This document shows positions 23,844 through 36,055 of a stretch of 64,000 nucleotides of DNA, one piece after another. Origin of the DNA: Rhizobium sullae (GTDB taxonomy: Bacteria; Pseudomonadota; Alphaproteobacteria; Rhizobiales; Rhizobiaceae); assembly GCF_025200715.1 (NCBI RefSeq), contig NZ_CP104144.1, positions 1,612,001-1,676,000 on the forward strand, given 5' to 3'. The notes under the pieces are model-generated. The model did no database searches and was not told the DNA's origin. It was given only the letters and a program-made list of their open reading frames with translations. How positions within the stretch are numbered: the first letter of the stretch is position 1; each line of letters starts with the position of its first letter. The position numbers and the translations under genes were made by a program.

Positions 23844-25064
23844 CTATTGTTGCGCGAGGCTCTGGATGGTCTCCATCGTCTGCTTGGCGTCGACACTGCC
23901 GGCGAAGGCGGGAGGAAAATACTGGTTGAAGAGGTTTTCTACCGCCGCCCAATTGTCGGTGATCGCGTAGGGTATGGAGTGCGCCAAGGAGTAGTCGAGG
24001 GCCTCGCCGCCATTGGTGATGTCTTTGGCCGCCACTTGGTACCAGGACGATTGCGCGGCAGTGCGCGCCGGCAACGCACGCCCCTTCTCGGCAAGGTACG
24101 ACAGCGCTTCAGGGCTCGTAAGCACCTGAATCGCCTTCCAGGCCGCATCCTTGTTCTGGCTGGTGGTGGAAATGCCGAAACCAGAGCCCGCCGTAACGGC
24201 CGCCAGCTCGCCCTCGTCGCGCGGCAGGGTGGTGAGACCGACCTTGAACTTGACCTCGTCTTTCATGCCAATGATGGACCAGGGACCGTCGACATACATG
24301 GCGATATTGCCTGAATTGAACCGGCCCTGGATGACCGTGCCGGCATCGTTGCCTGACGGCACAAGCGGCGCAATCTTATCCTTGGCGGCAAAGCCGATCA
24401 GCCTGTCGGCTGCGGCAATCGCGCGCGGATTGACGAGGTCGAGCTGTCCGGCGTCGTTGACGTATTTGTCGCCCCAAGCGGACGCCATGACCGAATAGTT
24501 GACCGGGGCGACACCGAAGCCGTAATTGCCGTCCTTGGTGAGCTTCTTTGCGGCATCGGTAAACTCGGCAAGCGTCCAGCCCGGTTTCGGCAAAGGAATG
24601 CCGGCGGCCTCGAAAGCCTCCTGGTTGTAATAGATCACCCATGGACCGACATCGTAAGGGAGGCCGTAAAGCTCCTTGTCAACCGACATGCCGCCGATGA
24701 TCGAGGGGGTGAAGGCGCCAAGGTCGAATTTGTCCGCCTCTATCCTCGCATTGAGCGGTTCGAGCAGCGAATAGAAGTTCGACATGCGCAATGATTGCAT
24801 GGAGACAATGTCGGCCAGCTGGCCCGACGCTGCCAACACCGGCAGCCTGGTCCAGTAGTCGACCCAGCCGGCGGTCTGCAGCGTCACTTTGATGTCTGGG
24901 TGCTTGGCACTTACCATGTCGGCCAAGTGCTGCCAGGTCTTGGTGTCGGTTTCGGAGGCGGTCCACATCTGCCAGGTCAGATTGACCTGATCGGCGGTTG
25001 CAGCCGTAGCAAAGAGGCTGCCGCCGATTGCGGCAAGCAATAGCGCTTTCTTCAGAACCTTCAT
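23844..25064 (-). CDS. CUT1 extracellular solute-binding protein (fucoside operon)
   Basis: A 406-residue periplasmic binding protein with a Sec signal peptide (MKVLKKALLLAAIGGSLF, cleavage likely after TATA near residue 24). The mature part has family 1 features: LTWQMWTASETDTKTWQ, LPYDVGPWVIYYNQEAF and MYVDGPWSIIGM. GGAGGA precedes the ATG at 25064. It follows the GH29 gene by 49 bp, so transport and hydrolysis of a fucosylated compound are probably linked. The ligand is inferred from that neighbour only. Confidence 0.93.
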   Translation of the reverse strand: MKVLKKALLLAAIGGSLFATAATADQVNLTWQMWTASETDTKTWQHLADMVSAKHPDIKVTLQTAGWVDYWTRLPVLAASGQLADIVSMQSLRMSNFYSLLEPLNARIEADKFDLGAFTPSIIGGMSVDKELYGLPYDVGPWVIYYNQEAFEAAGIPLPKPGWTLAEFTDAAKKLTKDGNYGFGVAPVNYSVMASAWGDKYVNDAGQLDLVNPRAIAAADRLIGFAAKDKIAPLVPSGNDAGTVIQGRFNSGNIAMYVDGPWSIIGMKDEVKFKVGLTTLPRDEGELAAVTAGSGFGISTTSQNKDAAWKAIQVLTSPEALSYLAEKGRALPARTAAQSSWYQVAAKDITNGGEALDYSLAHSIPYAITDNWAAVENLFNQYFPPAFAGSVDAKQTMETIQSLAQQ

Positions 25065-25113
25065 GGGTTTTCTCCTCCCTCCATGAATGCAATGGACAAG
25101 CAATGCTCGAACG

Positions 25114-26496
25114 CTACGGCTTCAGGACGATCTCGATCACCGGAACAGTAACGTCCGGCCGCCGTACCGGCAGTTCGAGCGTGATCACACCTTCCGGCAC
25201 GGTCACGCCGATATTGGAATCCACCTCCTTGATGTGGCTGAGCCAGCGCACCTCACTGGCGTCGTGCAGGAACTGCGCATAGGCGATCCTGTCCGCGATA
25301 CCCTCGATGTGGATGTGGCGGAAAGGCCAGTTGCAGATGTGCAGGTAGAGGCGGTTGCCGCGCTGGGTATAGCGGCAGCCCGACGGCACGGGATAGTCGG
25401 ACGGCCCTGCCCCGTAGATGGAGCGCCCGTTCACTGAAATCCAATTCTGGTAGACCTCAAGCCCAGCGATCGCGCGTGCATCAAGCATACCGCGGCCGGT
25501 CGGGCCGACATTCATCAGCAGGTTGCCTCCCATGGCGACGGAATCGATGAGCAGCTTGATGATTTGTTCTGGGCTCTTCCAGCTATCCTCGTCACGATGA
25601 TAGCCCCAGGAACCGCTGAAGGTATGGCAAGCCTCCCAGCGCACGGGCCGGCCAGCGATGGCGGGCGCGACGCGCGGCGTGTACTGCTCCGGTGTCACAA
25701 TGTCGGGCAGGTTGTCGCCGTCGAGCGGCAAATCGAGGCGGTTATTGACGATGATGCCTGGCTGCAACTCGCGCACCAGCCCAACCAGCCGCTCGCTCTC
25801 CCAGTCGACGCGTCCCTTGCCGGGCAGGCCGCGATATTCCCGTCGCGGATAGCTGAAATCGAACCACATGATGTCGATGCGGCCGAAGCCGGTCAGAAGC
25901 TCACGTACCTGTTCGTGCATGTAGGCGGTGTAGTTGGCCATGTTGCGGCCGGCATTCAGCGCTTTCGCGTCGGGGTGGTTGCGCAGCGGATGATGGACGT
26001 CGATCGGGAAGTCGGGGTGGTGCCAGTCGATCAGCGAATAGTAGAAGCCGATCTTCAGTCCCTCGGCGCGGAACGCCTCGACCAGCGGGGTCAGCAGGTC
26101 CTTGCCGCAAGGCGTGTTCGTCGCCTTGTAGTCCGTCACCTTGCTGTCCCACAGGCAGAAGCCCTCGTGATGCTTGGTCGTCACCACGACATATTTCATG
26201 CCGGCGAGACGGGCCCGGCGAGCCCATTCCTTGGGTTCATAGAGATCGGGATCGAAATTGTCGAAGTAGCGCTGGTACTGCTCGTCGGTCAGTTCCTCGC
26301 GGTTTTTCAACCACTCGTGCCGGGCGCCTAGAGCGTAGAGACCCCAATGGATGAACAGGCCCAGACGGTCGTGGCTGAACCACGCATGCTTGTCCACCTC
26401 CCCGAATGCCGGGCTCCCCGACTGACGCACCGCAATCGCCACAGGCCTCTCCTCCCTTGTTTCCAGTTCAGCATCCTTATCGAACCGGTTCGGCAT
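25114..26496 (-). CDS. Alpha-L-fucosidase, glycoside hydrolase family 29
   Basis: A 460-residue GH29 enzyme. The catalytic barrel has LGLFIHWGLYALG (His50), VVVTTKHHEGFCLWDS (the His109-His110 pair) and IDIMWFDFSYP with the likely nucleophile Asp213. A C-terminal beta-sandwich follows. GH29 enzymes release L-fucose with retention of configuration. No signal peptide is present, so it acts in the cytoplasm on an imported fucosylated oligosaccharide or glycoside. It is the first gene of the operon; a 12-bp palindrome lies within its first codons (26481-26492), directly over the translation start region. Linkage specificity cannot be read from sequence. Confidence 0.94.
   Translation of the reverse strand: MPNRFDKDAELETREERPVAIAVRQSGSPAFGEVDKHAWFSHDRLGLFIHWGLYALGARHEWLKNREELTDEQYQRYFDNFDPDLYEPKEWARRARLAGMKYVVVTTKHHEGFCLWDSKVTDYKATNTPCGKDLLTPLVEAFRAEGLKIGFYYSLIDWHHPDFPIDVHHPLRNHPDAKALNAGRNMANYTAYMHEQVRELLTGFGRIDIMWFDFSYPRREYRGLPGKGRVDWESERLVGLVRELQPGIIVNNRLDLPLDGDNLPDIVTPEQYTPRVAPAIAGRPVRWEACHTFSGSWGYHRDEDSWKSPEQIIKLLIDSVAMGGNLLMNVGPTGRGMLDARAIAGLEVYQNWISVNGRSIYGAGPSDYPVPSGCRYTQRGNRLYLHICNWPFRHIHIEGIADRIAYAQFLHDASEVRWLSHIKEVDSNIGVTVPEGVITLELPVRRPDVTVPVIEIVLKP
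26481..26492. promoter_or_regulatory. LacI operator copy 1, inside the start of the fucosidase gene
   Basis: CGAACCGGTTCG is a perfect 12-bp palindrome with central CG, covering codons 2-5 of the fucosidase gene. The core GAACCGGTTC followed by GAT (read on the minus strand) recurs exactly at 26635-26647, upstream of the divergent lacI gene. Confidence 0.65.
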
Positions 26497-26634
26497 TTGA
26501 TAATCGTCCTTGCCCTCTTAGCTGTCAAGCAGGAATCAAGGATTGCGAAATTCTAAGAAATTTCCTTGCAGCTTCGGGATAATCAAGATCCATGTGTTGC
26601 ATAGGCGAACAGAATCTGACACAAGAGCGTCATA

Positions 26635-26644
26635 GAACCGGTTC
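26635..26644. promoter_or_regulatory. LacI operator copy 2, upstream of the lacI start
   Basis: GAACCGGTTC, followed by GAT, lies 7 bp upstream of the lacI ATG at 26652. Its centre is 153 bp from copy 1. Two identical operators bracketing a divergent promoter region suit cooperative binding or looping by the LacI protein, repressing both itself and the fucoside operon. Confidence 0.65.
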
Positions 26645-26651
26645 GATCATA

Positions 26652-27659
26652 ATGGCAACCATCCGAGATGTCGCGCGCCTTGCGGGAGTTTCGATCTCGA
26701 CCGTCTCGCTCGCGCTGAACAGCCCGAAGCGGGTCGGGATCGAGACGCTCGACCGCATCCAGCAGGCCGTAAAAGCAACCGGTTATCGTATCGACCCGGT
26801 GGCCCAGACCCTGGCACGGGGACGCAGCTCGCTGATCGGCTTTGTCTCGGCCAATCTGGGCAACATGTTCTTTGGCGACATCCGCCGCGAGATAGAACAC
26901 CAGGCGCTGGACAACGGCTATTTCGTCCTGATCGCCGACTCCTCCGGTAAGGCGGACCTCGAGCGGGCGTTGCTGGAGCGGCTGGAAGCGCAGAGGATGG
27001 CCGGCATCGTGCTGGCTGCAAACGGGCGCGGGAACGACTACGCCGCATTCCTGCGCGACTTCAAGATACCCATCGTGATGTTCGACCAGAAGGTGGAAGG
27101 CGCCGAGCGCGATTTCGTCGGCTCCGACAACCCGCTCACCACCGCCATCCTGACGGAACACCTGCTGCAGCTCGGCCACAGACGCATCGCCTTCATCTCC
27201 GGCCCGGCCGGTCTGCACACCGCCGACGAGCGCCTGAAAGGCTATATGGACACGATGGCCGGTGCCGGCGTGGACGTCGACCCTTCGCTGGTGGTCGAAG
27301 GGGGCTACACCCGGACGGGCGGCTACAGGCAAGCGATGCGCCTGCTCGCCCGCCGCGATCGGCCGACCGCCATCATCGGCGCCAACAACATGATGGGTCT
27401 TGCAGCGCTTCAGGTGATGCAGGAGATGGGCTTCCGCTGCCCGGACGACGTGTCGCTGGCGATGGTCGACGACGTGCCCTGGAGCAGCGTGATCACGCCC
27501 CGCATCACCATGGTGGTGCAGGACGCCCAAAAGCTCGGCGAACTGGCGGCACAGCGCCTGCTGGCAAGAATCCAGAGCTCCGAGGGAGCCGCCGCGCCGC
27601 CGCAGGAACTCATCCTGACGCCGAGATTCGTGCGCGGTGACTCAACCAGGCGTCTTTGA
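26652..27659 (+). CDS. LacI-family regulator of the fucoside operon
   Basis: A 335-residue regulator with HTH MATIRDVARLAGVSISTVSL and hinge IDPVAQTLARGRSSLIG, followed by a sugar-binding-type effector domain (FVSANLGNMFFGDI; GANNMMGLAALQVM; VSLAMVDDVPW). The start at 26652 gives the exact N-terminus of the family; there is no strong ribosome-binding site, which suggests low expression. It is divergent from the fucosidase operon, with one of two identical palindromes just upstream of its ATG. The inducer is likely to be L-fucose or the imported fucoside. Confidence 0.94.
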   Translation: MATIRDVARLAGVSISTVSLALNSPKRVGIETLDRIQQAVKATGYRIDPVAQTLARGRSSLIGFVSANLGNMFFGDIRREIEHQALDNGYFVLIADSSGKADLERALLERLEAQRMAGIVLAANGRGNDYAAFLRDFKIPIVMFDQKVEGAERDFVGSDNPLTTAILTEHLLQLGHRRIAFISGPAGLHTADERLKGYMDTMAGAGVDVDPSLVVEGGYTRTGGYRQAMRLLARRDRPTAIIGANNMMGLAALQVMQEMGFRCPDDVSLAMVDDVPWSSVITPRITMVVQDAQKLGELAAQRLLARIQSSEGAAAPPQELILTPRFVRGDSTRRL

Positions 27660-27808: not shown

Positions 27809-28462
27809 CTAAAGGTAAGCCGCGTTGTGAAAGTCGATCTCCAGCTGCTGGACCCGGCCGAAGATGGCGCTGAGCCGAGTGCGTTCGGCAGGATCGAGGC
27901 TGTCGCCCGCGAGATCCAGTTCGGTCTTCAACCAGCGCGCCTGGGCGGCGAAATCCTCGTGTGCGTGGAGGTCCACCCATTCCTTGAGCAACGGATCGCT
28001 GATCCGGCACTCGGCGGCCTGCCTGGACCAGGTCCAGTACATCCATTCGGCTGCGAACATTGCGGCGATCGTATCGAGGAATTTTCCGGACCTTGCAGAT
28101 TCCAGCATGCCGTCGCGGAAGGCTGCCACCTCCGGACGATTGGTGTCGAAGGCGGAGGGATCGATCCTGCGCAAATTGAACGTCTTCTCGAAATAGGCGA
28201 TCTGCTGATTGGCAAGCGCATCCAGCACGCCGATCAGCCACCGTTTCTGCGCGATGGTCGCGGCCTCGGCCATCGCGTGGGCGAAGATCGAAATGGCCGT
28301 GTCTACGAAGTCGCCTTCGTAAACAAGGTACCGGTCGAAGACTTCCTTCGACAGCCGGTCCGCCTTGATGTCCTCGACAAAGCGGTGACTGACCATCGCC
28401 TCGAAGACGGCGCGGTTTTCCCGGATGACCTGGTCCGAAAGGCTCTCCAACGTGCGGCTCAT
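27809..28462 (-). CDS. TenA-like protein without the catalytic Cys (TenA_E type)
   Basis: A 217-residue all-helical TenA/THI-4 fold protein. Aligned by eye with thiaminase II, the active-site PCYWLY block is replaced by FAAEWMYW, so the nucleophilic Cys is missing, and the pyrimidine-binding Asp of QDSYYL is replaced in VYEGDFV. The late Glu in the C-terminal helix is kept. TenA_E proteins use Glu instead of Cys and act on amino-pyrimidine compounds, but this copy sits in a sugar-type operon with no thiamine gene nearby. Its ATG at 28462 shares one base with the BtpA-like gene stop (TGATG), so the two are coupled. A 53-codon frame downstream (27642-27803) is not called. Confidence 0.85.
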   Translation of the reverse strand: MSRTLESLSDQVIRENRAVFEAMVSHRFVEDIKADRLSKEVFDRYLVYEGDFVDTAISIFAHAMAEAATIAQKRWLIGVLDALANQQIAYFEKTFNLRRIDPSAFDTNRPEVAAFRDGMLESARSGKFLDTIAAMFAAEWMYWTWSRQAAECRISDPLLKEWVDLHAHEDFAAQARWLKTELDLAGDSLDPAERTRLSAIFGRVQQLEIDFHNAAYL

Positions 28463-29301
28463 CACTTCAATGCCGGTGCGGCCGCGGCGACGAAAGCCTT
28501 GACCCGTTCGATGTCCACCGGGCTCCACCACACGCCGCCATGCTTCAGCGACGACGCGACGATGACGCCGTTGGTACGCTTTAGGATCTCGACGATATTC
28601 TCCTTGCTGACACCCGACCCGACCAGCAACGGCAACTGGGTGGCGGCGCCGATCTCCTCAATCTCCTCGATGCTCGCCGTGCTGCCGGTGCGCTGGCCGG
28701 TGGCGATGACGGCATCGGCATCGAAAAAAGCGAGGTCGCGGGTCAACTCCTGGATCGTGCGGTCGGCCGTTATGGCATGGGCGCCGTGCTTGACGTGGCT
28801 GTCGGCGAAAACGCGGATATGTTCGGCTCGCAGCATGGAGCGGTAACGCATCGCTTCAGCCGCGCGTCCTTCCATGAAACCCTCATTCGCCACATAGGCA
28901 TTGGCCCACTGGTTGACACGGATGAACTTCGCGCCGCCGGCCATGGCTATTGCGAACGATGGGATCGGCGCATTCGCGAGGACGTTGATCCCGAGGGGGA
29001 CGCCGACGGCGCGGGCGATGCGATCGGTGATGACCGACATGAAGGCCGCGGTCTCGGGGCCGATATCCTCCGGCTTCGAGAAAGGGATGTCGCCATGGTT
29101 TTCGATGATCAGGCCATGCATGCCGCCTTCAATCAGGGCCTCCGCATCACGCATGCAGGCGTCGTAGATGGCGTTCATCTCCTCACCACGATAGCGCGGC
29201 GCTCCGGGGAAGGCGGGGCAATGGATCATGCCGATCAGCGCCTTGTCAGTCCCGAATATTTCCCGTATGGCGCTTGAGGTCTTGTCGGATATTTCCTGCA
29301 T
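28462..29301 (-). CDS. BtpA/SgcQ family protein
   Basis: A 279-residue protein of the BtpA family (predicted TIM barrel). Key blocks are ALIGMIHCPAFPGAPRYRG, GLIIENHGDIPF, GINVLANAPIPSFAIA, FIRVNQWANAYV, VFADSHVKHGAHAI and the phosphate-type loop LPLLVGSGVSKENI. The name comes from a cyanobacterial photosystem I factor, but heterotrophs carry it in sugar operons (SgcQ in E. coli sgc), where it is presumed to be an enzyme. Here it precedes tenA-like, and its start codon is only 25 bp from the divergent pfkB start. The glycine-rich phosphate-like loop suits a phosphorylated sugar substrate, perhaps the product of the PfkB kinase; this is inference. Confidence 0.88.
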   Translation of the reverse strand: MQEISDKTSSAIREIFGTDKALIGMIHCPAFPGAPRYRGEEMNAIYDACMRDAEALIEGGMHGLIIENHGDIPFSKPEDIGPETAAFMSVITDRIARAVGVPLGINVLANAPIPSFAIAMAGGAKFIRVNQWANAYVANEGFMEGRAAEAMRYRSMLRAEHIRVFADSHVKHGAHAITADRTIQELTRDLAFFDADAVIATGQRTGSTASIEEIEEIGAATQLPLLVGSGVSKENIVEILKRTNGVIVASSLKHGGVWWSPVDIERVKAFVAAAAPALK

Positions 29302-29326
29302 CTGTTTCCCTTTTCGAAAGCCAGTT

Positions 29327-30223
29327 ATGCGTGCTTATGTCATCGGCAACGTCACAGTGGACGAAACTATTTCCGTATCGGCCATGCCAGAGGCAGGCGC
29401 CTCGATCCTTGGCCGCGAGGAGACCCGTGATCTGGGCGGCAAGGGTGCGAACCAGGCCGTGGTGATGGGCCGCGCAGGCCTTGCCGTTACGCTGGTTGCG
29501 GCCGTCGGCGAAGATTTTCGCGCCGAGACCATCCGCAGCCAGTTGGCCGAAGAGCCAGTCGAGGCCAGACTGATCCAGCTGGCCGGCAAGGCAAGCGATT
29601 TCTCCATCATCTTCACGACCCCCGACGGTGAGAACGCCATTGTCACGACCACGGATTCGGCCGGTTCGCTGACGCTTGCGGAGGCGGTCACTCCGCTTGC
29701 CGAAAGCATCCCCGGCGATCTCCTCGTTCTGCAAGGCAATCTCACCGACGAGGTTACCCGCGGCATCCTTGAAGAAGCCAGGCATCGCCAGCTGCTCACA
29801 GCCTTCAACCCATCCCCCCTTCGCCCCTTCTTCACCGGCCTCTGGCCGCTCATCGATATTGCCTTTCTGAATAAAGGCGAGGCCGAGAGCCTGACCGGAG
29901 CCGCAGGCCAAGCTGCCGCCTCGGCCCTGATCTCCGCGGGGGTCAAACACGTGGTCCTGACCCTCGGCGGCGAAGGCGCGATGCTGGCAAGCGAAAGCGG
30001 CGCGCTGACGATCCCGGCGACACCCGCTAGCGTCATCGATACGACAGGTGCTGGCGACACGTTCATGGGCGTCACGCTCGCGTCTGCTGCCTTGCGGGGC
30101 GTGCCGCTCGACGCACGCGCCGTAAGGCACGCGACCGCCGCCGCTGCCCTCACCGTCAGCCGACGGGGAACCCGATCTGCGTTTCCCACCAAGGCCGAGC
30201 TTCATTCCATTCTCGCCGGCTGA
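29327..30223 (+). CDS. PfkB-family carbohydrate kinase (ribokinase-like)
   Basis: A 298-residue ribokinase-fold kinase. The N-terminal signature LGGKGANQAVVMGRAGL is present, with the C-terminal DTTGAGDTFMGV motif holding the catalytic Asp and anion hole; KHVVLTLGGEGAM is the nucleotide strand. The start ATG at 29327 matches the family (MRAYVIGNVTVDET), though the ribosome-binding site is weak. The substrate is probably a sugar or nucleoside taken up by the neighbouring CUT2 system. It is divergent from the BtpA/TenA pair and convergent with the GATase-like gene (4-bp gap), so it sits in the centre of the unassigned island. Confidence 0.92.
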   Translation: MRAYVIGNVTVDETISVSAMPEAGASILGREETRDLGGKGANQAVVMGRAGLAVTLVAAVGEDFRAETIRSQLAEEPVEARLIQLAGKASDFSIIFTTPDGENAIVTTTDSAGSLTLAEAVTPLAESIPGDLLVLQGNLTDEVTRGILEEARHRQLLTAFNPSPLRPFFTGLWPLIDIAFLNKGEAESLTGAAGQAAASALISAGVKHVVLTLGGEGAMLASESGALTIPATPASVIDTTGAGDTFMGVTLASAALRGVPLDARAVRHATAAAALTVSRRGTRSAFPTKAELHSILAG

Positions 30224-30227
30224 TCCT

Positions 30228-30998
30228 TCAGCGCGCCTCCGTCATCCAGGCAAGAAGATTGATCCACAAGCGTCCATAGCCCTTCCATTCGCAGAAAGCC
30301 GGCGACAGCCAGTGAGGGCCGATGTCGGAGGTCCAGGCGGCCGTGCGGCCCTTGCCGTGCGAACCGATTACCAGCAACGGATGGCTCCCTTGATCCTCTG
30401 GCAGACGGGCAAGCACCTCAACATCGGGGCGGTCGCGCAGTTCCACCTCGTTGACGCCAAGGAGCAGCGGCCATTCGCCGTCAAGGCCGGCCATGACGGG
30501 ATGCTCCGGCTTCAGCACAACGGCGGTCGAGCCCTCTGGCATTTCGACGCGGTCGTCATAGGCAAGGCAGGTGACCGGCAGGGCATCTTCAACCGGCGTG
30601 CGGCGCCAGCGCGCCTTGCCGTCGATGCCCTGGAACGAGAAGTAGCCGCCGACCATCAGCAGGCCGCCGCCTTTTTCGACCCAGGCCTTGATGAGCTTCA
30701 GCCGGTTCGGCACCGTCTTCGAATGCAACCAGACCGCTGGCGGCAGCAGCAGCGAGTTTGCCCCGATATCGGAAAGGATGATCGCATCATAGGCGTCGAG
30801 CCCGGCCATTTCGAAGGGGAATTTTTCGACGGCCTCATGCGCCGGCATATAAGTCAGTTCGAACTCGCTGCCTTCGAGCGCCTTTACCAGCGGCTCGGCG
30901 CCCAGATGGAAGGTGACGCTGCCGAACTGGTCGAAACCCTTGTAATGGGTTGCCGAGCTGACCCAGCTTTCACCGACGAGGAGCACTTTCTTTGTCAT
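30228..30998 (-). CDS. GATase1-like (class I glutamine amidotransferase-like) protein
   Basis: A 256-residue flavodoxin-like protein resembling the GATase1_like/DUF1355 group. The first strand is KKVLLVGESWVSSATHYKGFD; YDAIILSDIGANSLLLPP and EKGGGLLMVGGYFSFQG are the core strands, and WTSDIGPHWLSP is the conserved C-terminal block. The nucleophile Cys of true glutamine amidotransferases is not visible in the usual turn, so an amidotransferase reaction is doubtful. It is the last gene of the minus-strand operon lacI-CUT2-phosphotriesterase, 42 bp after the latter. Two direct 9-bp repeats (31001-31009 and 31011-31019) precede its start codon. Function unknown. Confidence 0.82.
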   Translation of the reverse strand: MTKKVLLVGESWVSSATHYKGFDQFGSVTFHLGAEPLVKALEGSEFELTYMPAHEAVEKFPFEMAGLDAYDAIILSDIGANSLLLPPAVWLHSKTVPNRLKLIKAWVEKGGGLLMVGGYFSFQGIDGKARWRRTPVEDALPVTCLAYDDRVEMPEGSTAVVLKPEHPVMAGLDGEWPLLLGVNEVELRDRPDVEVLARLPEDQGSHPLLVIGSHGKGRTAAWTSDIGPHWLSPAFCEWKGYGRLWINLLAWMTEAR

Positions 30999-31040
30999 TG
31001 TCTTACCGTATCTTACCGTTTCTTTGAGGAGTTCCGGCCG

Positions 31041-32108
31041 TCAGGCAGAGGCTTGGAAGACCGAACGCGGGTTGTCGCGCATCATCCGGCCGATGACCGC
31101 GTCATCGAGGCCATGCCGTTTCAGGCGCGGCAGGAAATGTTTGAGAATATAGGCATAGCCGTTGCCGCCGTATTTCGTCAGCATCATCTTCAGGAAGACG
31201 TCATGGGAGAGCAGGACGCGGTCGCCATGCCCCATCCCCACGAGCCTGGCGATGGCGCGCGCGGCCTCCTCGTCGCTCGGGCACTGCACCTGCTGGTCCC
31301 CATAGAAGAAATCCATGCCGATCATGTCATACTCCAGGAATGCGCCGCGCGACGCGATCTCGCTCTGATAGCCGAGATCGTCATGCGACGGGTTCATGTG
31401 GCAAAGTACGGTGTGGCGAAGATCGCCGCCCTCTTCCGCCACGATGTCGAGCACCTTGTGGCCGAGTCGGAACCAGCCGGGCAGATGCACCATCAGTGGA
31501 AGGCCTGTGCGGCGATGAGCCTGGGCCGCACCGCGCAGCGACTTTTCTTCCTCCGCTGTGAAATCGGAAGAAACGCCAATCTCGCCGATTAGGCCGATCC
31601 TCACATCCGTGCCGTCAGCACCCTCGATCGCCTCGCGGACGATCTCGTCGGCGATTTGCGTCACACCCATGCCCGCCACCTTGGCCGGATGCGACGAGGC
31701 GAGATAGTAGCCCGCACCCATCACGATATTGAGCCCCGTCGACTTGGCTATGCGTCGGAGCGCCAGCGGGTCGCGGCCGATGCCCTGGCATGTCGGCTCG
31801 ACGACCGTCCTGCCGCCTTCTCTCGCGAAATCCTTGAGCTCGACGATCGCCAGCGCCTCGTCGTCCAGCGTTATATTGTGCTTGTTGACGAACGGATCCT
31901 GGCGGAGCTCACCGAGGATTTCCATGCACACGAAGCCGTCGGCGAGATATTGCCGCTCCGGCGTCTTCGGCGCATGCCACCAGCAGCGGCAGTCGTTGAG
32001 GATATGCTCGTGCATCAGCGTGACGCCGAGCTCATCGGCCGGAACCGGTCCGGCAACGGTCATCACGTTGCCGGATCGAAGATGGCCTTCAGAGAGTTCG
32101 GCTGCCAT
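31041..32108 (-). CDS. Phosphotriesterase-homology (PHP/lactonase-type) amidohydrolase
   Basis: A 355-residue binuclear metal hydrolase. The HxH motif is in VTLMHEHIL; the bridging acid is Glu in LIGEIGVSSDF, as in E. coli PHP, instead of the carboxylated Lys of true phosphotriesterase; further ligands are His in LPLMVHLPGW and HTVLCHMNPSHDD, and Asp in LLSHDVFLK. Relatives hydrolyse sugar lactones, phosphorylated lactones or esters. The start at 32108 is 3 bp past the permease stop with a GAAAGGG upstream; an in-frame ATG at 32063 is an alternative. Its place in a CUT2 operon suggests it opens a lactone or ester of the imported sugar. Confidence 0.9.
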   Translation of the reverse strand: MAAELSEGHLRSGNVMTVAGPVPADELGVTLMHEHILNDCRCWWHAPKTPERQYLADGFVCMEILGELRQDPFVNKHNITLDDEALAIVELKDFAREGGRTVVEPTCQGIGRDPLALRRIAKSTGLNIVMGAGYYLASSHPAKVAGMGVTQIADEIVREAIEGADGTDVRIGLIGEIGVSSDFTAEEEKSLRGAAQAHRRTGLPLMVHLPGWFRLGHKVLDIVAEEGGDLRHTVLCHMNPSHDDLGYQSEIASRGAFLEYDMIGMDFFYGDQQVQCPSDEEAARAIARLVGMGHGDRVLLSHDVFLKMMLTKYGGNGYAYILKHFLPRLKRHGLDDAVIGRMMRDNPRSVFQASA

Positions 32109-32111
32109 CGA

Positions 32112-33116
32112 TCAGCCCTTTCCCTTGCCGCCGAAACGGAATCTGGTGGTGAAGATGCGGGTATTGAGCCAGATCGCCAGGAGGATGATCGCGCCGGTGA
32201 CGATCTGCGTGAAGAACGGTGAGACATGCATCAGGATGAGTCCATTGCCGATCACCGCGATGGTCAGCGTGCCGAGTACCGTGCCGAGGATCGTACCGCG
32301 ACCGCCCATCAGCGACGTGCCACCGAGCACCACGGCCGCGACCACCTGCAATTCGAAGCCGACGGCCGCGTTCGATGATCCGGAGCCAAGACGTGCAGCG
32401 ATCAATAATCCGGCCAATGCCGACGCCACGCCGGAGACGAGATAGACGGAGGCGACGATCCATTGCGCCGGCATGCCGACGCGGCGGGCCGCTTCCATGT
32501 TGGAGCCGACCGCCACGACCTGCCGTCCATATTTTGTCGAGGAAATTACGACATAACCGATGGCAGCGACGAGAATGGCGATCAACGCCGGCACCGGCAG
32601 CCCCACGAGCTGGCCGCGTCCCAGCCAGAAAAAGCCCGGGACGTCCTTGATCGGGATCGAATATCCCTGGGTCAGATAAAGCGCCAGGCCGCGCAGGATG
32701 GAGAGCCCCGCCAACGTGACGATGAAGGCCGGAATGCCCTGGTAGGCGACGAACCATCCCTGGACGAGACCCATCAGCGCACCAAAGGCCAGCATACCGA
32801 AGACGACGACAGGCCAGGGATAACCCATGGCGAGGATGATCGCCGCCACGGCATTGACGAGCGCCACCTGCGAGCCCACCGACAGATCGATTCCGCCGGT
32901 GACGATGACCAGGGTCATGGCGACTGCCACGACGAGAATCGGCGCCGCCTGGCGTATGACGTTCAGTATGTTCCCGGCCGTCATGAATGTGTCGGTGGTG
33001 ATCGAGAAGAACACCATGCAGGCGAGGAAGAAAGAGGCGATCGAAAGGACCTGCGCATGTTCGCTGACGAAATCGGCAAGCGGCGAGCCCTTGGCGCGTT
33101 CAGTGTAGACTGTCAC
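32112..33116 (-). CDS. CUT2 ABC importer permease, RbsC/FrcC type
   Basis: A 334-residue permease with about eight to ten membrane segments; typical blocks are VTGGIDLSVGSQVAL, AFIVTLAGLSILRGLAL, GVASALAGLLIAARLGSG and LQVVAAVVLGGTSLMGGRGT. A GTG start at 33116 overlaps the ATPase gene by 4 bp (GTGA). It would dimerise to form the channel for the periplasmic binding protein encoded two genes upstream. CUT2 systems import monosaccharides such as ribose, fructose or galactose, and some nucleosides; the substrate here is not known. Confidence 0.95.
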   Translation of the reverse strand: MTVYTERAKGSPLADFVSEHAQVLSIASFFLACMVFFSITTDTFMTAGNILNVIRQAAPILVVAVAMTLVIVTGGIDLSVGSQVALVNAVAAIILAMGYPWPVVVFGMLAFGALMGLVQGWFVAYQGIPAFIVTLAGLSILRGLALYLTQGYSIPIKDVPGFFWLGRGQLVGLPVPALIAILVAAIGYVVISSTKYGRQVVAVGSNMEAARRVGMPAQWIVASVYLVSGVASALAGLLIAARLGSGSSNAAVGFELQVVAAVVLGGTSLMGGRGTILGTVLGTLTIAVIGNGLILMHVSPFFTQIVTGAIILLAIWLNTRIFTTRFRFGGKGKG

Positions 33117-33925
33117 TGTCTTTCCCCTCCGACAATGAGCTTTACCAGATCCTCGAGATTGGTTTTGCCGATATCGCGCTCGGCGACCTTGGTGCCCTCA
33201 TACATGACAGCGATACGGTCACAGACACGGAAAAGGTCCTGCAGACGATGGGTAATGAGCACGACCGAAACGCCCTTCGCCTTGACGCGATTGATGAGCG
33301 AAAGCACGGCTTCCACCTCCGCAACGGCAAGTGCTGAAGTCGGCTCGTCCATGATCAGGACCTTGGGGTTGAAGGAAGCGGCGCGGGCAATTGCAATTGC
33401 CTGGCGCTGGCCGCCGGAGAGCTTTTCGACCTTGGCCGTCAACCTCGGGATACGGATTTCCAAGGCGTCGAGCATCTTGCGCGCTTCGGCAAGCATTGTC
33501 GCACGATCGAGGAAAGGACCCTTGGTGATTTCTCGGCCGAGAAAGAGATTACCGACCACATCGATATGATCGCAGAGGCTCAAGTCCTGGAAGACCATCT
33601 CGATATTGCGCGAGCGAGCCTCGGCGGGGCCGGAAAACCGTACCTCCTCCCCGTCGATCGAGATCGTTCCGCCGTCGGGAATATAGGTCCCGGAGACGAT
33701 CTTGGTGAGTGTTGACTTACCCGCTGCATTGTCGCCGACAAGCCCGAGGCATTCGCCGGGATAGAGGTCGAGGTCGACACCGCGCAACGCCTGGTGCGAG
33801 CCGAAGGTCTTGCGGATATCGCGAAGCGACACGCGCGGCAGTCTTCCCGCCTCCCCGGACTGCCGGGAGAGCATGGCTCCCCCGGCCCCGGAGACAGCGC
33901 TTGAGTGCTGTCCATGCGCGATCAT
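33113..33925 (-). CDS. CUT2 ABC importer ATPase, single-domain FrcA type
   Basis: A 270-residue ATPase with one nucleotide-binding domain instead of the two fused domains of RbsA, as in the rhizobial FrcA group. Walker A is GDNAAGKST (Asn-Ala in place of Gly-Ser, usual in this group), signature LSGGQRQAIAIARA, Walker B VLIMDEPTSALAV and H-loop LITHRLQDL. The ATG overlaps the binding-protein stop by 4 bp (ATGA). It works as a homodimer with the RbsC-type permease. The N-terminal 20 residues are Gly/Ser-rich and poorly conserved, so the true start could be slightly downstream. Confidence 0.94.
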   Translation of the reverse strand: MIAHGQHSSAVSGAGGAMLSRQSGEAGRLPRVSLRDIRKTFGSHQALRGVDLDLYPGECLGLVGDNAAGKSTLTKIVSGTYIPDGGTISIDGEEVRFSGPAEARSRNIEMVFQDLSLCDHIDVVGNLFLGREITKGPFLDRATMLAEARKMLDALEIRIPRLTAKVEKLSGGQRQAIAIARAASFNPKVLIMDEPTSALAVAEVEAVLSLINRVKAKGVSVVLITHRLQDLFRVCDRIAVMYEGTKVAERDIGKTNLEDLVKLIVGGERQ

Positions 33926-34878
33926 TTAAAAACGGCCCTATAAGGTTCGACATTCTCCTTGGTGACGATGGTGACCGGAATGGCGATGTTTTTCTCGACC
34001 GAACCGCCGTCCGAAATCTTCTTCAAGGCATCGACGGCAGCAGCACCCATGGCTGCCGGATCCTGCTGGATCACGGCTGCGACGTAACCTGCGTCGATGC
34101 CGGCGATCGCCTGGGCGGTTAGATCCCAGCCGAACACCTTGATGGTGTCCTGTTTGCCCTGGCTTTCAACAGCTGCGATGGCGCCCATCAGCGCCGGTTC
34201 GCCGGTCGCATAGACCGCCGTCATGTCCGGATTGCCGGTAATCAGGTTTTCAGCGGCGGCCAGCGCATTGTCTTGGATGTTCTGGCCGTCGACTACGCCT
34301 GCCTTTTCAATACCGGAGACACCTTCTAATGTCTTTTCGAAGCCTTCCTGGCGGACGTTCTGGATGAACGAATTCAGCGCGCCGACGACGCCGATCTTCA
34401 CCTTGCCGTCCATGTTTGCCTTGACATAGTCGAGGAAGAACTTGCCCATGTCGGCGCCGGCCTTGGCATTGTCGACACCAATCTGTGCTTTTTGCGGGCC
34501 GTCGGGGAGGATGGCGTCGATCGCCACGACGGGGATGCCGGCGTCTGCCGCCTGCTTGACGGCCGGCATGATGCCGTTGACGTCGATGGCAACGACAGCA
34601 AGGCCGGCGACCTTTTGCTGGATGTAGGTTTCGATCGCGCTGTTTTGGGCAGCCGGATCGTTGTTGGCGTTGAAGATCACGAGTTTTGCGCCTGCGGCAT
34701 CAGCCGCCTTCTGGGCGCCCTCGTTCATCTGGTTGAAGAACAATGCCTGCTGGTTGATCTGCACCAGCGCGAAGGTTTTTTCCTGCGCCTTTGCGCCAAG
34801 CCCTGCGAGCGAGGCGGCTGCCAGTGCCGTGAAGCCGAGTGCGACTGTAAATGTTCTGCGTTTGATCGTCCGGTTCAT
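33922..34878 (-). CDS. CUT2 periplasmic sugar-binding protein, RbsB type
   Basis: A 318-residue type I periplasmic binding protein. The signal region MNRTIKRRTFTVALGF carries a twin-arginine-like pair before a hydrophobic stretch ending AKAQ near residue 31. Mature blocks include FNQMNEGAQKAADAAGAKLVIFNANNDPAAQNSAIE, IPVVAIDAIL, AVYATGEPALMGAI and IKVFGWDLTAQAI. GAGGAT upstream supports the ATG at 34878. It follows the lacI gene by 35 bp and probably shares its transcript. The ligand is unassigned; it resembles ribose/xylose-type sensors. Confidence 0.93.
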   Translation of the reverse strand: MNRTIKRRTFTVALGFTALAAASLAGLGAKAQEKTFALVQINQQALFFNQMNEGAQKAADAAGAKLVIFNANNDPAAQNSAIETYIQQKVAGLAVVAIDVNGIMPAVKQAADAGIPVVAIDAILPDGPQKAQIGVDNAKAGADMGKFFLDYVKANMDGKVKIGVVGALNSFIQNVRQEGFEKTLEGVSGIEKAGVVDGQNIQDNALAAAENLITGNPDMTAVYATGEPALMGAIAAVESQGKQDTIKVFGWDLTAQAIAGIDAGYVAAVIQQDPAAMGAAAVDALKKISDGGSVEKNIAIPVTIVTKENVEPYRAVFK

Positions 34879-34913
34879 GTTCTCATCCTCTGGTTCTTTT
34901 TTGTCCATTGCAT

Positions 34914-35939
34914 TTATGGCTTCGCAGGCGGCGCAACGGAATTCCGCACAACGATTTCGACCGGCAGGAGTTCCTCCTGAGAGGACGGAGTCCGCTCCTG
35001 CCAGTTCGTCTCAAGAAGCAGCGAGAGTGCGCGCTGGCCGATCTTCCGAACGGGCTGGCGGATGGCCGTCAGCGGCGGCGCAAAAAGATGCAGCGGCCCG
35101 ACGTCATCGAAACCGATGACCGATACGTCTTGCGGGATCGAAACGCCCTCACCGCGCAAGACTTCGATGAGGCCGATGGCGATCTCGTCCGAACTCGCGA
35201 AGATTGCGCTGGCAGGCATTCCTTCGCCGATAAAGCGCTTGGCAGCTTCCCGCCCGAAGGCAACGGTGTATTCGCCCTTGTAATTGAGGAAGGTGGCATC
35301 AGCGCCCCACCGTTCGCGCACGCCCCTTTCGAGCCCATGGAACCGGCGCTGAGCACTAATCATCCGTTCGGGCCCCCCTACGAACAGGATGCGGCAATGC
35401 CCCGTTTCGGCAAGATGCTGCCCCGCGAGATAGCCGCCCCTTTCATTGTCGCAGAAGAGCTTCGGCGCCAGTGCATCTGGTACGTCTTCGTCGACGACGA
35501 CGACCTTGCCGGTGCGATTGATGAGCGCACCAAGCTGTCCGTCATCCGGATGGTTGGTGACGAAGATCAATCCATCGACATGATTGCGCTCGATAAGCTG
35601 AAGATAGACGATCTCGCGGCCCGGTCGGTTCAAAGTCGCATAGAGCGAAACGGCAAGCCCGCGGCGATCCGCCTCCTCCTCAACCGCTGCCACCAGCGTC
35701 GCGAAGAACGGATTGGCGATGTCAGGCACCACGAGGCCGATCGTATCGGAGCGGCCGCGGCTCAGGCGCCGCGCATGGGGATTGGGCTGATAGTTGAGGT
35801 CGCGGATCGCATCCTCGATCCGCTTCCTCGTCTCGTGGGGAAGTGCCAGCGAGCCGTTCAGCAGCCGAGAAACCGTCGTCACGGAAACGCCAGCAGCACC
35901 CGCGACGTCCTTCAGGCTCGTAACTCGTTCATTCGCCAT
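34914..35939 (-). CDS. LacI-family regulator heading the CUT2/phosphotriesterase operon
   Basis: A 341-residue LacI-type regulator: HTH VTSLKDVAGAAGVSVTTVSRLLNG, hinge YQPNPHARRLSRGRSDTIG, then an effector domain (VVPDIANPFFATLVAAVEEEADRRG; IFASSDEIAIGLIEVL; VIGFDDVGPL). It is the first gene of the operon lacI, binding protein, ATPase, permease, phosphotriesterase-like, GATase-like. Two tandem operator-like dyads lie between 35948 and 35974, right upstream of its start, so it probably represses itself and the whole operon. Whether it also controls pfkB and btpA is open: I found no copy of the dyad between 29301 and 29327. Confidence 0.94.
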   Translation of the reverse strand: MANERVTSLKDVAGAAGVSVTTVSRLLNGSLALPHETRKRIEDAIRDLNYQPNPHARRLSRGRSDTIGLVVPDIANPFFATLVAAVEEEADRRGLAVSLYATLNRPGREIVYLQLIERNHVDGLIFVTNHPDDGQLGALINRTGKVVVVDEDVPDALAPKLFCDNERGGYLAGQHLAETGHCRILFVGGPERMISAQRRFHGLERGVRERWGADATFLNYKGEYTVAFGREAAKRFIGEGMPASAIFASSDEIAIGLIEVLRGEGVSIPQDVSVIGFDDVGPLHLFAPPLTAIRQPVRKIGQRALSLLLETNWQERTPSSQEELLPVEIVVRNSVAPPAKP

Positions 35940-35947
35940 GACAGCCT

Positions 35948-35974
35948 GTAAACCGCTTTAGTAAACCGATTTAC
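35948..35974. promoter_or_regulatory. Two tandem LacI-type operators
   Basis: GTAAACCGATTTAC (35961-35974) is a dyad with six of seven pairs matching around a central CG. GTAAACCGCTTTAG (35948-35961) matches it at 12 of 14 positions and shares one base with it. The pair lies 9 bp upstream of the lacI start codon at 35939. Tandem spacing of 13 bp puts both on nearly opposite sides of the helix plus a partial turn, or allows competing registers for one dimer. Confidence 0.65.
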
Positions 35975-36055
35975 TATTTAGCCCACCGATGCGTTCATGA
36001 GTCAAGCGGACTTTGCGCGCGTTGTTGCGGGCGCCGAACCACCGGCGCCGTCGCC

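What the first reader, a model, noticed from the sequence alone, without database searches (positions are those of the whole stretch)
27809..35974. Unassigned catabolic island: BtpA/SgcQ, TenA-like, PfkB kinase, phosphotriesterase homologue, GATase-like and CUT2 importer
Six enzyme-like genes plus a LacI-controlled CUT2 importer are packed in 8 kb with overlapping or near-overlapping genes, yet none of the enzymes has an obvious textbook partner. Known: BtpA/SgcQ proteins occur in sugar operons without assigned reaction; PfkB enzymes phosphorylate sugars or nucleosides; PHP-type amidohydrolases open lactones and esters; TenA_E acts on amino-pyrimidines. Inference: an imported glycoside, nucleoside-like compound or lactone is hydrolysed (PHP), phosphorylated (PfkB) and then cleaved or rearranged by BtpA, with TenA-like acting on an amine or pyrimidine part. 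This is the best candidate for a previously undescribed pathway in the window.
Basis: partly seen in the sequence, partly recalled or inferred. Interest (0 to 1): 0.72.

Follow-up and report, generated by a model that had tools for sequence, protein, structure and literature searches.

The report
Conserved uncharacterised ribose-derivative catabolic operon
A soil bacterium carries a compact, widely conserved gene set that appears to import and dismantle a bulky, nitrogen-containing relative of the sugar ribose by a route that I could not match to any described pathway, and it includes what looks like a remodelled vitamin-B1-salvage enzyme.

Summary
In the 80 genome loci closest by BtpA, LacI, three importer genes, PTE, GATase1_like, PfkB and BtpA match in 80 of 80, TenA in 72, and an M20 amidohydrolase that the window lacks in 45; 79 are co-linear apart from pfkB. 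All 80 have LacI-type operator sites ahead of lacI, 74 as a pair in 13-bp register; none lies in the 24-49 bp gap between divergent pfkB and btpA (62 loci), so btpA-tenA may be read through inverted pfkB (untested). The binding protein keeps 6 of 10 RbsB pocket residues, the other four being Ala/Gly: I infer a ribose derivative larger than ribose. The TenA is TenA_E-like but fixed for residues that 15 outside relatives lack, with no TPP riboswitch found beside it. BtpA models as a TrpF/TrpA-like barrel and lies near a sugar kinase in 33 of 35 regions. Best reading: import, amide hydrolysis, phosphorylation, BtpA cleavage or rearrangement. Substrate and every reaction remain unproven.

The parts
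34914..35939 (-). LacI-family repressor, first gene of the operon
   Evidence: Pfam LacI + Peripla_BP_3; matched in 80 of 80 loci
35948..35974 (.). paired LacI-type operator: two 14-bp near-palindromes in 13-bp register (GTAAACCGCTTTAG / GTAAACCGATTTAC on + strand)
   Evidence: pair in 74 of 80 loci, sites without such a pair in the other 6, 159 sites in all, none in a mononucleotide shuffle
36000..36005 (-). TTGACT, possible -35 element of the lacI promoter
   Evidence: read; by a regular expression TTGAC lies within 45 bp of an operator-like half in 79 of 80 loci
33922..34908 (-). CUT2 periplasmic binding protein (RbsB-like, enlarged pocket by alignment)
   Evidence: Pfam Peripla_BP_4; PDB 5hsg 397 bits; pocket mapping
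33113..33925 (-). CUT2 ATPase, single domain; overlaps its neighbours by 4 bp on each side
   Evidence: Pfam ABC_tran
32112..33116 (-). CUT2 permease
   Evidence: Pfam BPD_transp_2
31041..32108 (-). PTE-family metal-dependent hydrolase with Glu at the metal-bridge position
   Evidence: Pfam PTE; PDB 3k2g 580 bits, Pmi1525 232, PTER 222; H33 H35 E176 H208 H237 D303 at 97% or more in 76 sequences
30228..30998 (-). GATase1_like protein (PF07090), no conserved cysteine
   Evidence: Pfam 424 bits; PDB 2gk3 and 3soz; conservation
29327..30223 (+). PfkB/ribokinase-family sugar kinase, inverted inside the run
   Evidence: Pfam PfkB; TIGR02152 189 of 299.65 bits needed; PDB 3i3y 259 bits; start read; inverted in 62 of 80 loci
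28462..29301 (-). BtpA/SgcQ-family TIM barrel, probable enzyme on the phosphorylated intermediate
   Evidence: Pfam BtpA; model pTM 0.86; fold matches
27809..28462 (-). TenA_E-like protein of a distinct clade; inferred start overlaps the btpA stop by one base
   Evidence: Pfam TENA_THI-4

Best explanation
A LacI-controlled catabolic operon for a ribose derivative that carries an N-acyl, ureido or N-heterocyclic substituent (a nucleoside- or ribosyl-ureide-like compound). SEEN in the sequence: the gene set and its conservation; one operator region, ahead of lacI; a ribose-type binding protein whose aligned pocket is enlarged; a PTE with conserved metal ligands; a PfkB kinase with conserved catalytic motif; BtpA with a phosphosugar-type barrel (predicted); a TenA_E-like clade changed at fixed positions; an M20 amidohydrolase beside it in many other strains. 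INFERRED: (1) CUT2 imports the ligand; (2) PTE, with M20 where present, hydrolyses amide or ureide bonds of the substituent; (3) PfkB phosphorylates the pentose hydroxyl; (4) BtpA, working like TrpF/TrpA-type barrels, cleaves or Amadori-rearranges the phosphopentosyl-N compound, so that ribose-5-phosphate or ribulose-5-phosphate enters central metabolism; (5) the TenA hydrolyses a C-N bond of the released part; (6) GATase1_like is not a glutamine amidotransferase and has an unknown accessory or hydrolytic role; (7) btpA-tenA are reached by read-through of inverted pfkB (a noncontiguous operon).
For: Conservation: 80 of 80 loci match LacI, importer, PTE, GATase1_like, PfkB and BtpA, 72 TenA, 45 an M20 hydrolase, none lacks both of the last two. 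Control: operator sites in all 80, a 13-bp-register pair in 74; one exact site in the own genome; no operator between pfkB and btpA in the 62 loci with divergent starts 24-49 bp apart. Ligand: 6 of 10 RbsB pocket residues kept, 4 replaced by Ala/Gly, all at 95% or more in 102 binding proteins (pocket list from a table passage of PMC2630998). PTE: metal ligands kept. BtpA: a PfkB or FGGY kinase nearby in 33 of 35 regions, including Haloferax; fold matches to TrpA, TrpF, ThiE, HisF, DHPS and MJ1099. Amide chemistry: M20 hydantoinase/carbamoylase-type next to or instead of TenA, ArgE/DapE-type M20 in the Pantoea-like version. TenA: island rows form one side of a 100/100 branch (45 rows, a sample).
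Against: No substrate, activity or expression is known. Distant BtpA relatives sit with FGGY kinase, SDR, DeoR and CUT1 genes and no amide hydrolase, and a cyanobacterial BtpA is reported to be required for the first step of tetrapyrrole synthesis (title of a cited paper, seen only as a reference); BtpA need not be an N-glycoside enzyme. The pocket comes from a sequence alignment, and in the RbsB alanine scan N190A acted through protein abundance and F164A, F16A and Q235A had no significant effect (PMC5557919), so two of the four changed positions may say little about the ligand. A shared TIM-barrel fold shows no function. Read-through of pfkB rests on missing operators only: TTGAC is absent upstream of btpA and pfkB in 62 of 62, but so, or nearly so, are control pentamers (0-1 of 62). 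The Paracoccus locus L028 has no operator site at one mismatch.
Confidence: 0.4

Rival explanations
1. Amadori- or opine-like compound: an N-glycated amino compound is imported, PfkB phosphorylates it and BtpA acts as deglycase, with PTE and M20 removing acyl groups.
For: Kinase plus BtpA plus amidohydrolases would fit; PfkB has a weak hit to fructoselysine 6-kinase among many (43.8 of 247 bits); carriers include plant-associated bacteria.
Against: Best PfkB subfamily is ribokinase and the binding protein keeps RbsB-type contacts; no SIS-type deglycase among the product names.
Confidence: 0.2
2. An ordinary ribose or nucleoside uptake route with bystander genes.
For: RbsB-like binding protein, ribokinase-like PfkB, RbsR-like LacI, all below the curated cut-offs; some changed pocket positions matter little in RbsB.
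Against: PfkB scores 189 bits against 299.65 needed for ribokinase, the binding protein 105 of 337 for RbsB; four pocket residues are Ala/Gly and fixed; PTE, GATase1_like and BtpA are kept in 80 of 80 loci.
Confidence: 0.13
3. A lactone or quorum-signal degradation operon with the PTE as lactonase.
For: Many PTE-family enzymes are lactonases (papers seen only in the listing).
Against: Closest solved relatives are 3k2g, Pmi1525 and PTER, ahead of the PDB entries named phosphotriesterase or organophosphorus hydrolase (that those include the lactonases is recalled); the metal bridge position is Glu, aligned with PTER E169; no reason for BtpA, TenA and M20.
Confidence: 0.1
4. Thiamin-pyrimidine salvage (FAMP to AmMP to HMP) with TenA_E and an M20 deformylase, like YlmB and TenA in Bacillus.
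For: TenA_E with an M20 enzyme resembles the FAMP route (PMC10470507 passages); outside relatives of the TenA lie in 5 of 15 cases near a shared gene that is an NMT1/THI5-type binding protein in the one tested, and 3 of 4 searched have a TPP riboswitch.
Against: The island TenA differs from 15 of 15 outside relatives at E51 and Q89; no TPP riboswitch in the window or in 7 of 7 relatives searched, although the own genome has three elsewhere; Sagittula stellata E-37, which carries an island-type TenA after BtpA, did not grow on FAMP (the authors suggest a missing transporter).
Confidence: 0.05

Closest known systems
RbsACB/RbsK ribose operon (CUT2 importer, ribokinase, LacI-type RbsR; composition recalled)
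   Same: importer class, LacI control, PfkB-family kinase; 6 of 10 RbsB pocket residues
   Different: four fixed pocket changes; scores below the ribose-specific models; PTE, GATase1_like, BtpA, TenA and often M20 added
Thiamin-pyrimidine salvage (ThiXYZ, YlmB, TenA)
   Same: TenA_E-type protein, with an M20 amidohydrolase in many loci, and an importer
   Different: different importer family, LacI operator and no TPP riboswitch found, TenA clade with fixed differences
sgc operon of E. coli and other BtpA/SgcQ loci
   Same: BtpA beside a sugar-phosphorylating system (content of sgc recalled, not from a call; kinase pairing)
   Different: PTS or FGGY kinase and SDR there; amide-type hydrolases here
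Cyanobacterial BtpA (photosystem I biogenesis; tetrapyrrole synthesis, Skotnicova et al. 2024, seen only as a reference)
   Same: same Pfam family
   Different: below the NF045918 cut-off (200 of 400 bits); catabolic gene context
PTER, N-acetyltaurine / N-acetyl-beta-alanine hydrolase
   Same: PTE family; E176 aligned with the metal ligand E169
   Different: PTER R204, R233 and H300 align with G211, P240 and F305, so its substrate is not expected
Noncontiguous operon (menE-menC-MW1733-ytkD-MW1731, S. aureus; review PMC7154746, passages)
   Same: one gene on the opposite strand inside a run of co-oriented genes
   Different: transcription not measured here; 18 of 80 loci have pfkB co-oriented

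Membership tests
TenA_E (TenA lacking the active-site Cys) | no Cys at the active-site Cys position, Glu next to it | tested here: met
   A140 aligns with the Cys of PDB 2rd3 (H. pylori TenA, organism recalled), E141 follows and aligns with Glu in 1z72; E141 in 103 of 103 island and 15 of 15 outside sequences
TenA_E (thiamin-pyrimidine salvage enzyme) | Asp at island position 51 and Glu at 89, as in the outside relatives | tested here: not met
   E51 and Q89 in 103 of 103; D and E in 15 of 15 outside. That position 51 is Asp44 of B. subtilis TenA, and that Asp44 recognises the pyrimidine, is inferred and recalled
Thiamin regulon | TPP riboswitch nearby | tested here: not met
   none in the window or in 7 of 7 relatives searched; positive control 3 of 4 outside TenA loci
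Ribokinase (TIGR02152) | score above curated cut-off | tested here: not met
   189.1 against 299.65 bits
PfkB superfamily kinase | Pfam match and GAGD motif | tested here: met
   153.7 bits; D241 G244 A245 G246 D247 (numbering from 29318) at 97% or more in 95 sequences
PTE family | binuclear metal ligands HxH, bridge, H, H, D | tested here: met
   76 sequences; Pfam
PTER-type N-acetyltaurine hydrolase | substrate-contacting R204, R233, H300 (docking, named in PMC11374699) | tested here: not met
   G211, P240, F305; numbering offset taken from E169, it fits H201, H230 and D298 but not the N-terminal H26/H28, where the PDB chain has a different offset
Class I glutamine amidotransferase | conserved nucleophile Cys | tested here: not met
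   no Cys among columns at 97% or more identity, 114 sequences
Photosystem I biogenesis BtpA (NF045918) | score above curated cut-off | tested here: not met
   200.2 against 400 bits; the broader TIGR00259 BtpA/SgcQ cut-off is passed, 237.2 against 153.4
Phosphoribosylanthranilate isomerase / TrpA | same fold and active site | tested here: inconclusive
   TIM-barrel match with TrpF and TrpA among many phosphate-binding barrels; only BtpA models matched the window protein
Noncontiguous operon | co-transcription across an opposite-strand gene | not testable with these tools
   architecture fits; needs strand-specific RNA data

The most novel reading that the evidence does not exclude
BtpA of this operon is a phosphopentosyl C-N lyase, hydrolase or Amadori isomerase that works in tandem with a PfkB kinase on a ribosylated ureide, formamide or modified nucleoside. 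That would be a kinase-first salvage route parallel to PsuK/PsuG, with a neofunctionalised TenA_E and an M20/PTE pair stripping the nitrogen part, expressed from one promoter through an inverted kinase gene; and it would assign a catalytic role to a family otherwise named for photosystem I biogenesis.
Probability: 0.2. Interest if true: 0.74.

Novelty: new variant of a known kind. Interest (0 to 1): 0.5.

Why it matters
Three protein families kept together here (BtpA/SgcQ, GATase1_like PF07090, the 3k2g-type PTE) have no assigned catabolic reaction that I could find. For BtpA the searches were 218 papers, 40 listed; none; the one listed paper holding both names only mentions the family and cites a cyanobacterial study. 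For the other two I made no exhaustive search. A fixed gene set with one operator region, one binding protein and one kinase makes these assayable: the binding protein can be screened for ligand and each enzyme tested in order. It also warns that TenA_E counts in metagenomes need not mean vitamin B1 salvage, which may bear on the unexplained failure of Sagittula stellata E-37 to use FAMP.

Tried and rejected
Viral contigs: a BtpA scan found no relative. Literature: BtpA/SgcQ as a catabolic enzyme, nothing found; one search listed 40 of 218 papers, mostly a Brucella protein of the same name or chemicals, and I opened one of them. Regulon search: besides the exact operator site at the lacI promoter, sites with up to two mismatches are no commoner than control (20 against 23 per strand), so no further regulon genes could be named. 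XdhC beside the M20 gene in R. tumorigenes and Rhizobium sp. K15/93 looked like a purine hint but is not listed in the other HTH-cupin loci, so I dropped it. Thiamin salvage, plain ribose, lactone and PTER-type chemistry were considered and marked down (see rivals). An outright swap of TenA for M20 was my first reading from A. vitis and R. tumorigenes; one search corrected it: 37 loci have both, 35 only TenA, 8 only M20. In 35 of the 37 the M20 match begins at or within 500 bp after the TenA match; in L082 and L106 it lies elsewhere; in 8 of the 45 the best M20 piece covers under 80% of the query. The script used an out-of-frame PfkB query; its counts are not used. A missing TTGAC box before btpA and pfkB was my argument for read-through until the control showed other pentamers equally rare there; I withdrew it, and lowered the best explanation from 0.42 to 0.40 and the novel case from 0.22 to 0.20, and raised plain ribose/nucleoside from 0.12 to 0.13 after re-reading the RbsB alanine scan; interest went from 0.52 to 0.50. 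The promoter and terminator scan found nothing beyond chance. I had taken the transporter of the E. coli plasmid cluster by eye for an EamA type; in L197 the gene at that place is Pfam YdcZ. Families not listed by the fold aligner are not excluded.

Full report
WHAT IS THERE. The window lies in G000:C2:1612001-1676000 of a 7.6 Mb, four-contig genome; the best named match of its BtpA is Rhizobium sullae, 100%. The island reads, on the minus strand, lacI, binding protein, ATPase, permease, PTE, GATase1_like, then BtpA and TenA, with pfkB on the plus strand between GATase1_like and BtpA. Genes overlap or nearly touch: ATPase and its two neighbours by 4 bp, TenA (inferred start) and BtpA by one base, SBP and LacI 5 bp apart, PTE and permease 3 bp, GATase1_like and PTE 42 bp, pfkB and GATase1_like ends 4 bp, pfkB and btpA starts 25 bp.

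CONSERVATION. tblastn of PTE and BtpA against plasmids gives 200 and 190 records. Annotated regions show the set in R. johnstonii 3841, Pantoea sp. At-9b, Pannonibacter and Paracoccus, and with an M20 hydrolase in place of TenA in R. tumorigenes (no LacI there) and A. vitis. In those 80, LacI, binding protein, ATPase, permease, PTE, GATase1_like, PfkB and BtpA match in 80 (tblastn E 1e-12 or better; one PTE, one GATase1_like, one SBP and one TenA only in part), TenA in 72; 79 are co-linear with pfkB left aside, the exception being L082. An M20 hydantoinase/carbamoylase-type hydrolase matches in 45 (both with TenA 37, TenA only 35, M20 only 8, neither 0); pfkB is inverted in 62 and co-oriented in 18. 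These 80 are the closest relatives, so the counts describe one clade. The own genome's best M20 relative is 40% identical and lies outside the window. In the genus sample 57 of 100 genomes have some BtpA match, so the island is an accessory trait.

OTHER VERSIONS. Eight distant BtpA proteins that lie with FGGY kinases are 27-31% identical; SDR and CUT1 genes are frequent beside them, and a second copy in this genome is of that kind (L161). Counting the 15 plasmid regions and the 20 regions, a PfkB or FGGY kinase lies near BtpA in 33 of 35; the exceptions are L160 and L165, the kinase matches in L151 and L168 are weak or in pieces, and in L167 the kinase is 6 kb away. GATase1_like also occurs without BtpA: of 119 genomes of one family 12 have it, and in L197 it lies with PfkB, PTE and a YdcZ-type transporter.

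CONTROL. Upstream of lacI lie two 14-bp near-palindromes (consensus GTAAANCGNTTTAC) that share one base. With at most one mismatch, all 80 loci have such sites, 74 as a pair in 13-bp register; 159 sites in all, none in a mononucleotide-shuffled control. All but one (L098, position 12655) lie just ahead of lacI. Of five plasmid loci scanned in the same call, four have them and the Paracoccus locus L028 has none. In the own genome the pattern GTAAAYCGRTTTAC occurs exactly once, here; with two mismatches its count is no higher than the control's. The divergent pfkB and btpA starts are 24-49 bp apart in the 62 loci, with no operator between them. I infer that btpA-tenA depend on the lacI promoter and are transcribed antisense to pfkB, the arrangement called a noncontiguous operon (PMC7154746, abstract and passages). 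This is not shown. The lack of TTGAC before btpA and pfkB (0 of 62) is no support, since control pentamers are as rare there (0-1 of 62).

LIGAND. The binding protein is closest to PDB 5hsg (397 bits; a Klebsiella protein as I recall) and then to ribose-binding proteins. Mapped through the HMMER alignment to 1dbp (E. coli RbsB, organism recalled), of the ten pocket residues in the table of PMC2630998 (passage), F15, F16, D89, R141, D215 and Q235 are kept, while N13, R90, F164 and N190 are A55, A132, G208 and G236; all ten are at 95% or more in 102 family sequences. The alanine scan of RbsB (PMC5557919, abstract and passages) puts D89, R141, D215 and N190 in the pocket, but finds N190A to act through protein abundance and no significant effect of F16A, F164A, F214A or Q235A. 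I read the pattern as a ribose-type core with a larger substituent; it is an inference from alignment only.

TenA. The protein lacks the catalytic Cys and has E141 as in TenA_E. Of 19 outside TenA regions fetched, 15 gave a TenA in my gene calls; the other four were dropped. Against those 15, the 103 island rows (some from duplicate records) are fixed for E51 (outside D 15 of 15), Q89 (outside E 15 of 15), H214 (outside F 14 of 15) and A58 (outside L or F). A tree of 45 rows, with 30 of the 103 island rows, separates the two groups with 100/100 support. A shared gene occurs near TenA in 5 of the 15 outside loci and is Pfam NMT1, a ThiY-type binding protein, in the one tested. TPP riboswitches lie in 3 of 4 outside loci searched (L234 has none) and in none of the window or 7 island relatives searched. 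Sagittula stellata E-37, whose plasmid has an island-type TenA directly after BtpA, is reported to hold a TenA_E (A3K4E0) yet not to grow on FAMP (PMC10470507, passages). Whether A3K4E0 is that plasmid gene I could not verify.

READING. The parts suggest import of a bulky ribose derivative, hydrolysis of amide- or ureide-type bonds, phosphorylation, and action of BtpA on the phosphorylated sugar. Which compound, in which order, and what BtpA does are open. Against a single tight pathway stand the loci with only part of the set (L150, L164, L197) and L082.

NOVELTY. All families are known; I found the pathway described nowhere in what I searched. A cyanobacterial BtpA is linked to tetrapyrrole synthesis by a paper that I saw only as a reference. 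I rate the operon a new variant of a known kind, with the BtpA reaction and the altered TenA as the parts worth a specialist's time.

Noticed in passing
window 25114-26496 (-), 23844-25103 (-), 26592-27659 (+): Next to the island, an alpha-L-fucosidase (Pfam), an extracellular solute-binding protein and a second LacI regulator look like a separate sugar locus.
   Followed up: partly
G000:C2:2429332-2430102 (L161): The same genome has a second, distant BtpA (31% identical) with FGGY kinase, SDR, DeoR and CUT1 importer genes, a common BtpA setting.
   Followed up: partly
L165 8980-9783: In an Aminobacter plasmid a BtpA lies near genes annotated as phosphoribosylaminoimidazolesuccinocarboxamide synthase, PurH and phosphoribosylanthranilate isomerase and a Rieske protein, possibly a nucleoside-type pathway.
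   Followed up: no
L053 12920-17743 (second GATase1_like also in L064, L065, L077): Downstream of the island in some rhizobia lies a second locus: in L053, by eye, a LacI-HTH/PfkB fusion, a second GATase1_like (about 71% identical) and another sugar-type ABC importer.
   Followed up: partly
L164 101-4147: An E. coli plasmid has a DeoR-HTH/PfkB fusion, GATase1_like and a PTE, with no BtpA in the annotated stretch; the PTE matches in two pieces. Described only.
   Followed up: partly
L166 7998-9768: In Haloferax larsenii BtpA lies beside a carbohydrate kinase family gene, so the BtpA-kinase pairing reaches Archaea.
   Followed up: partly
L098 13596-13831: A cobalamin riboswitch lies about 2 kb beyond the TenA gene in Alloyangia pacifica.
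   Followed up: no
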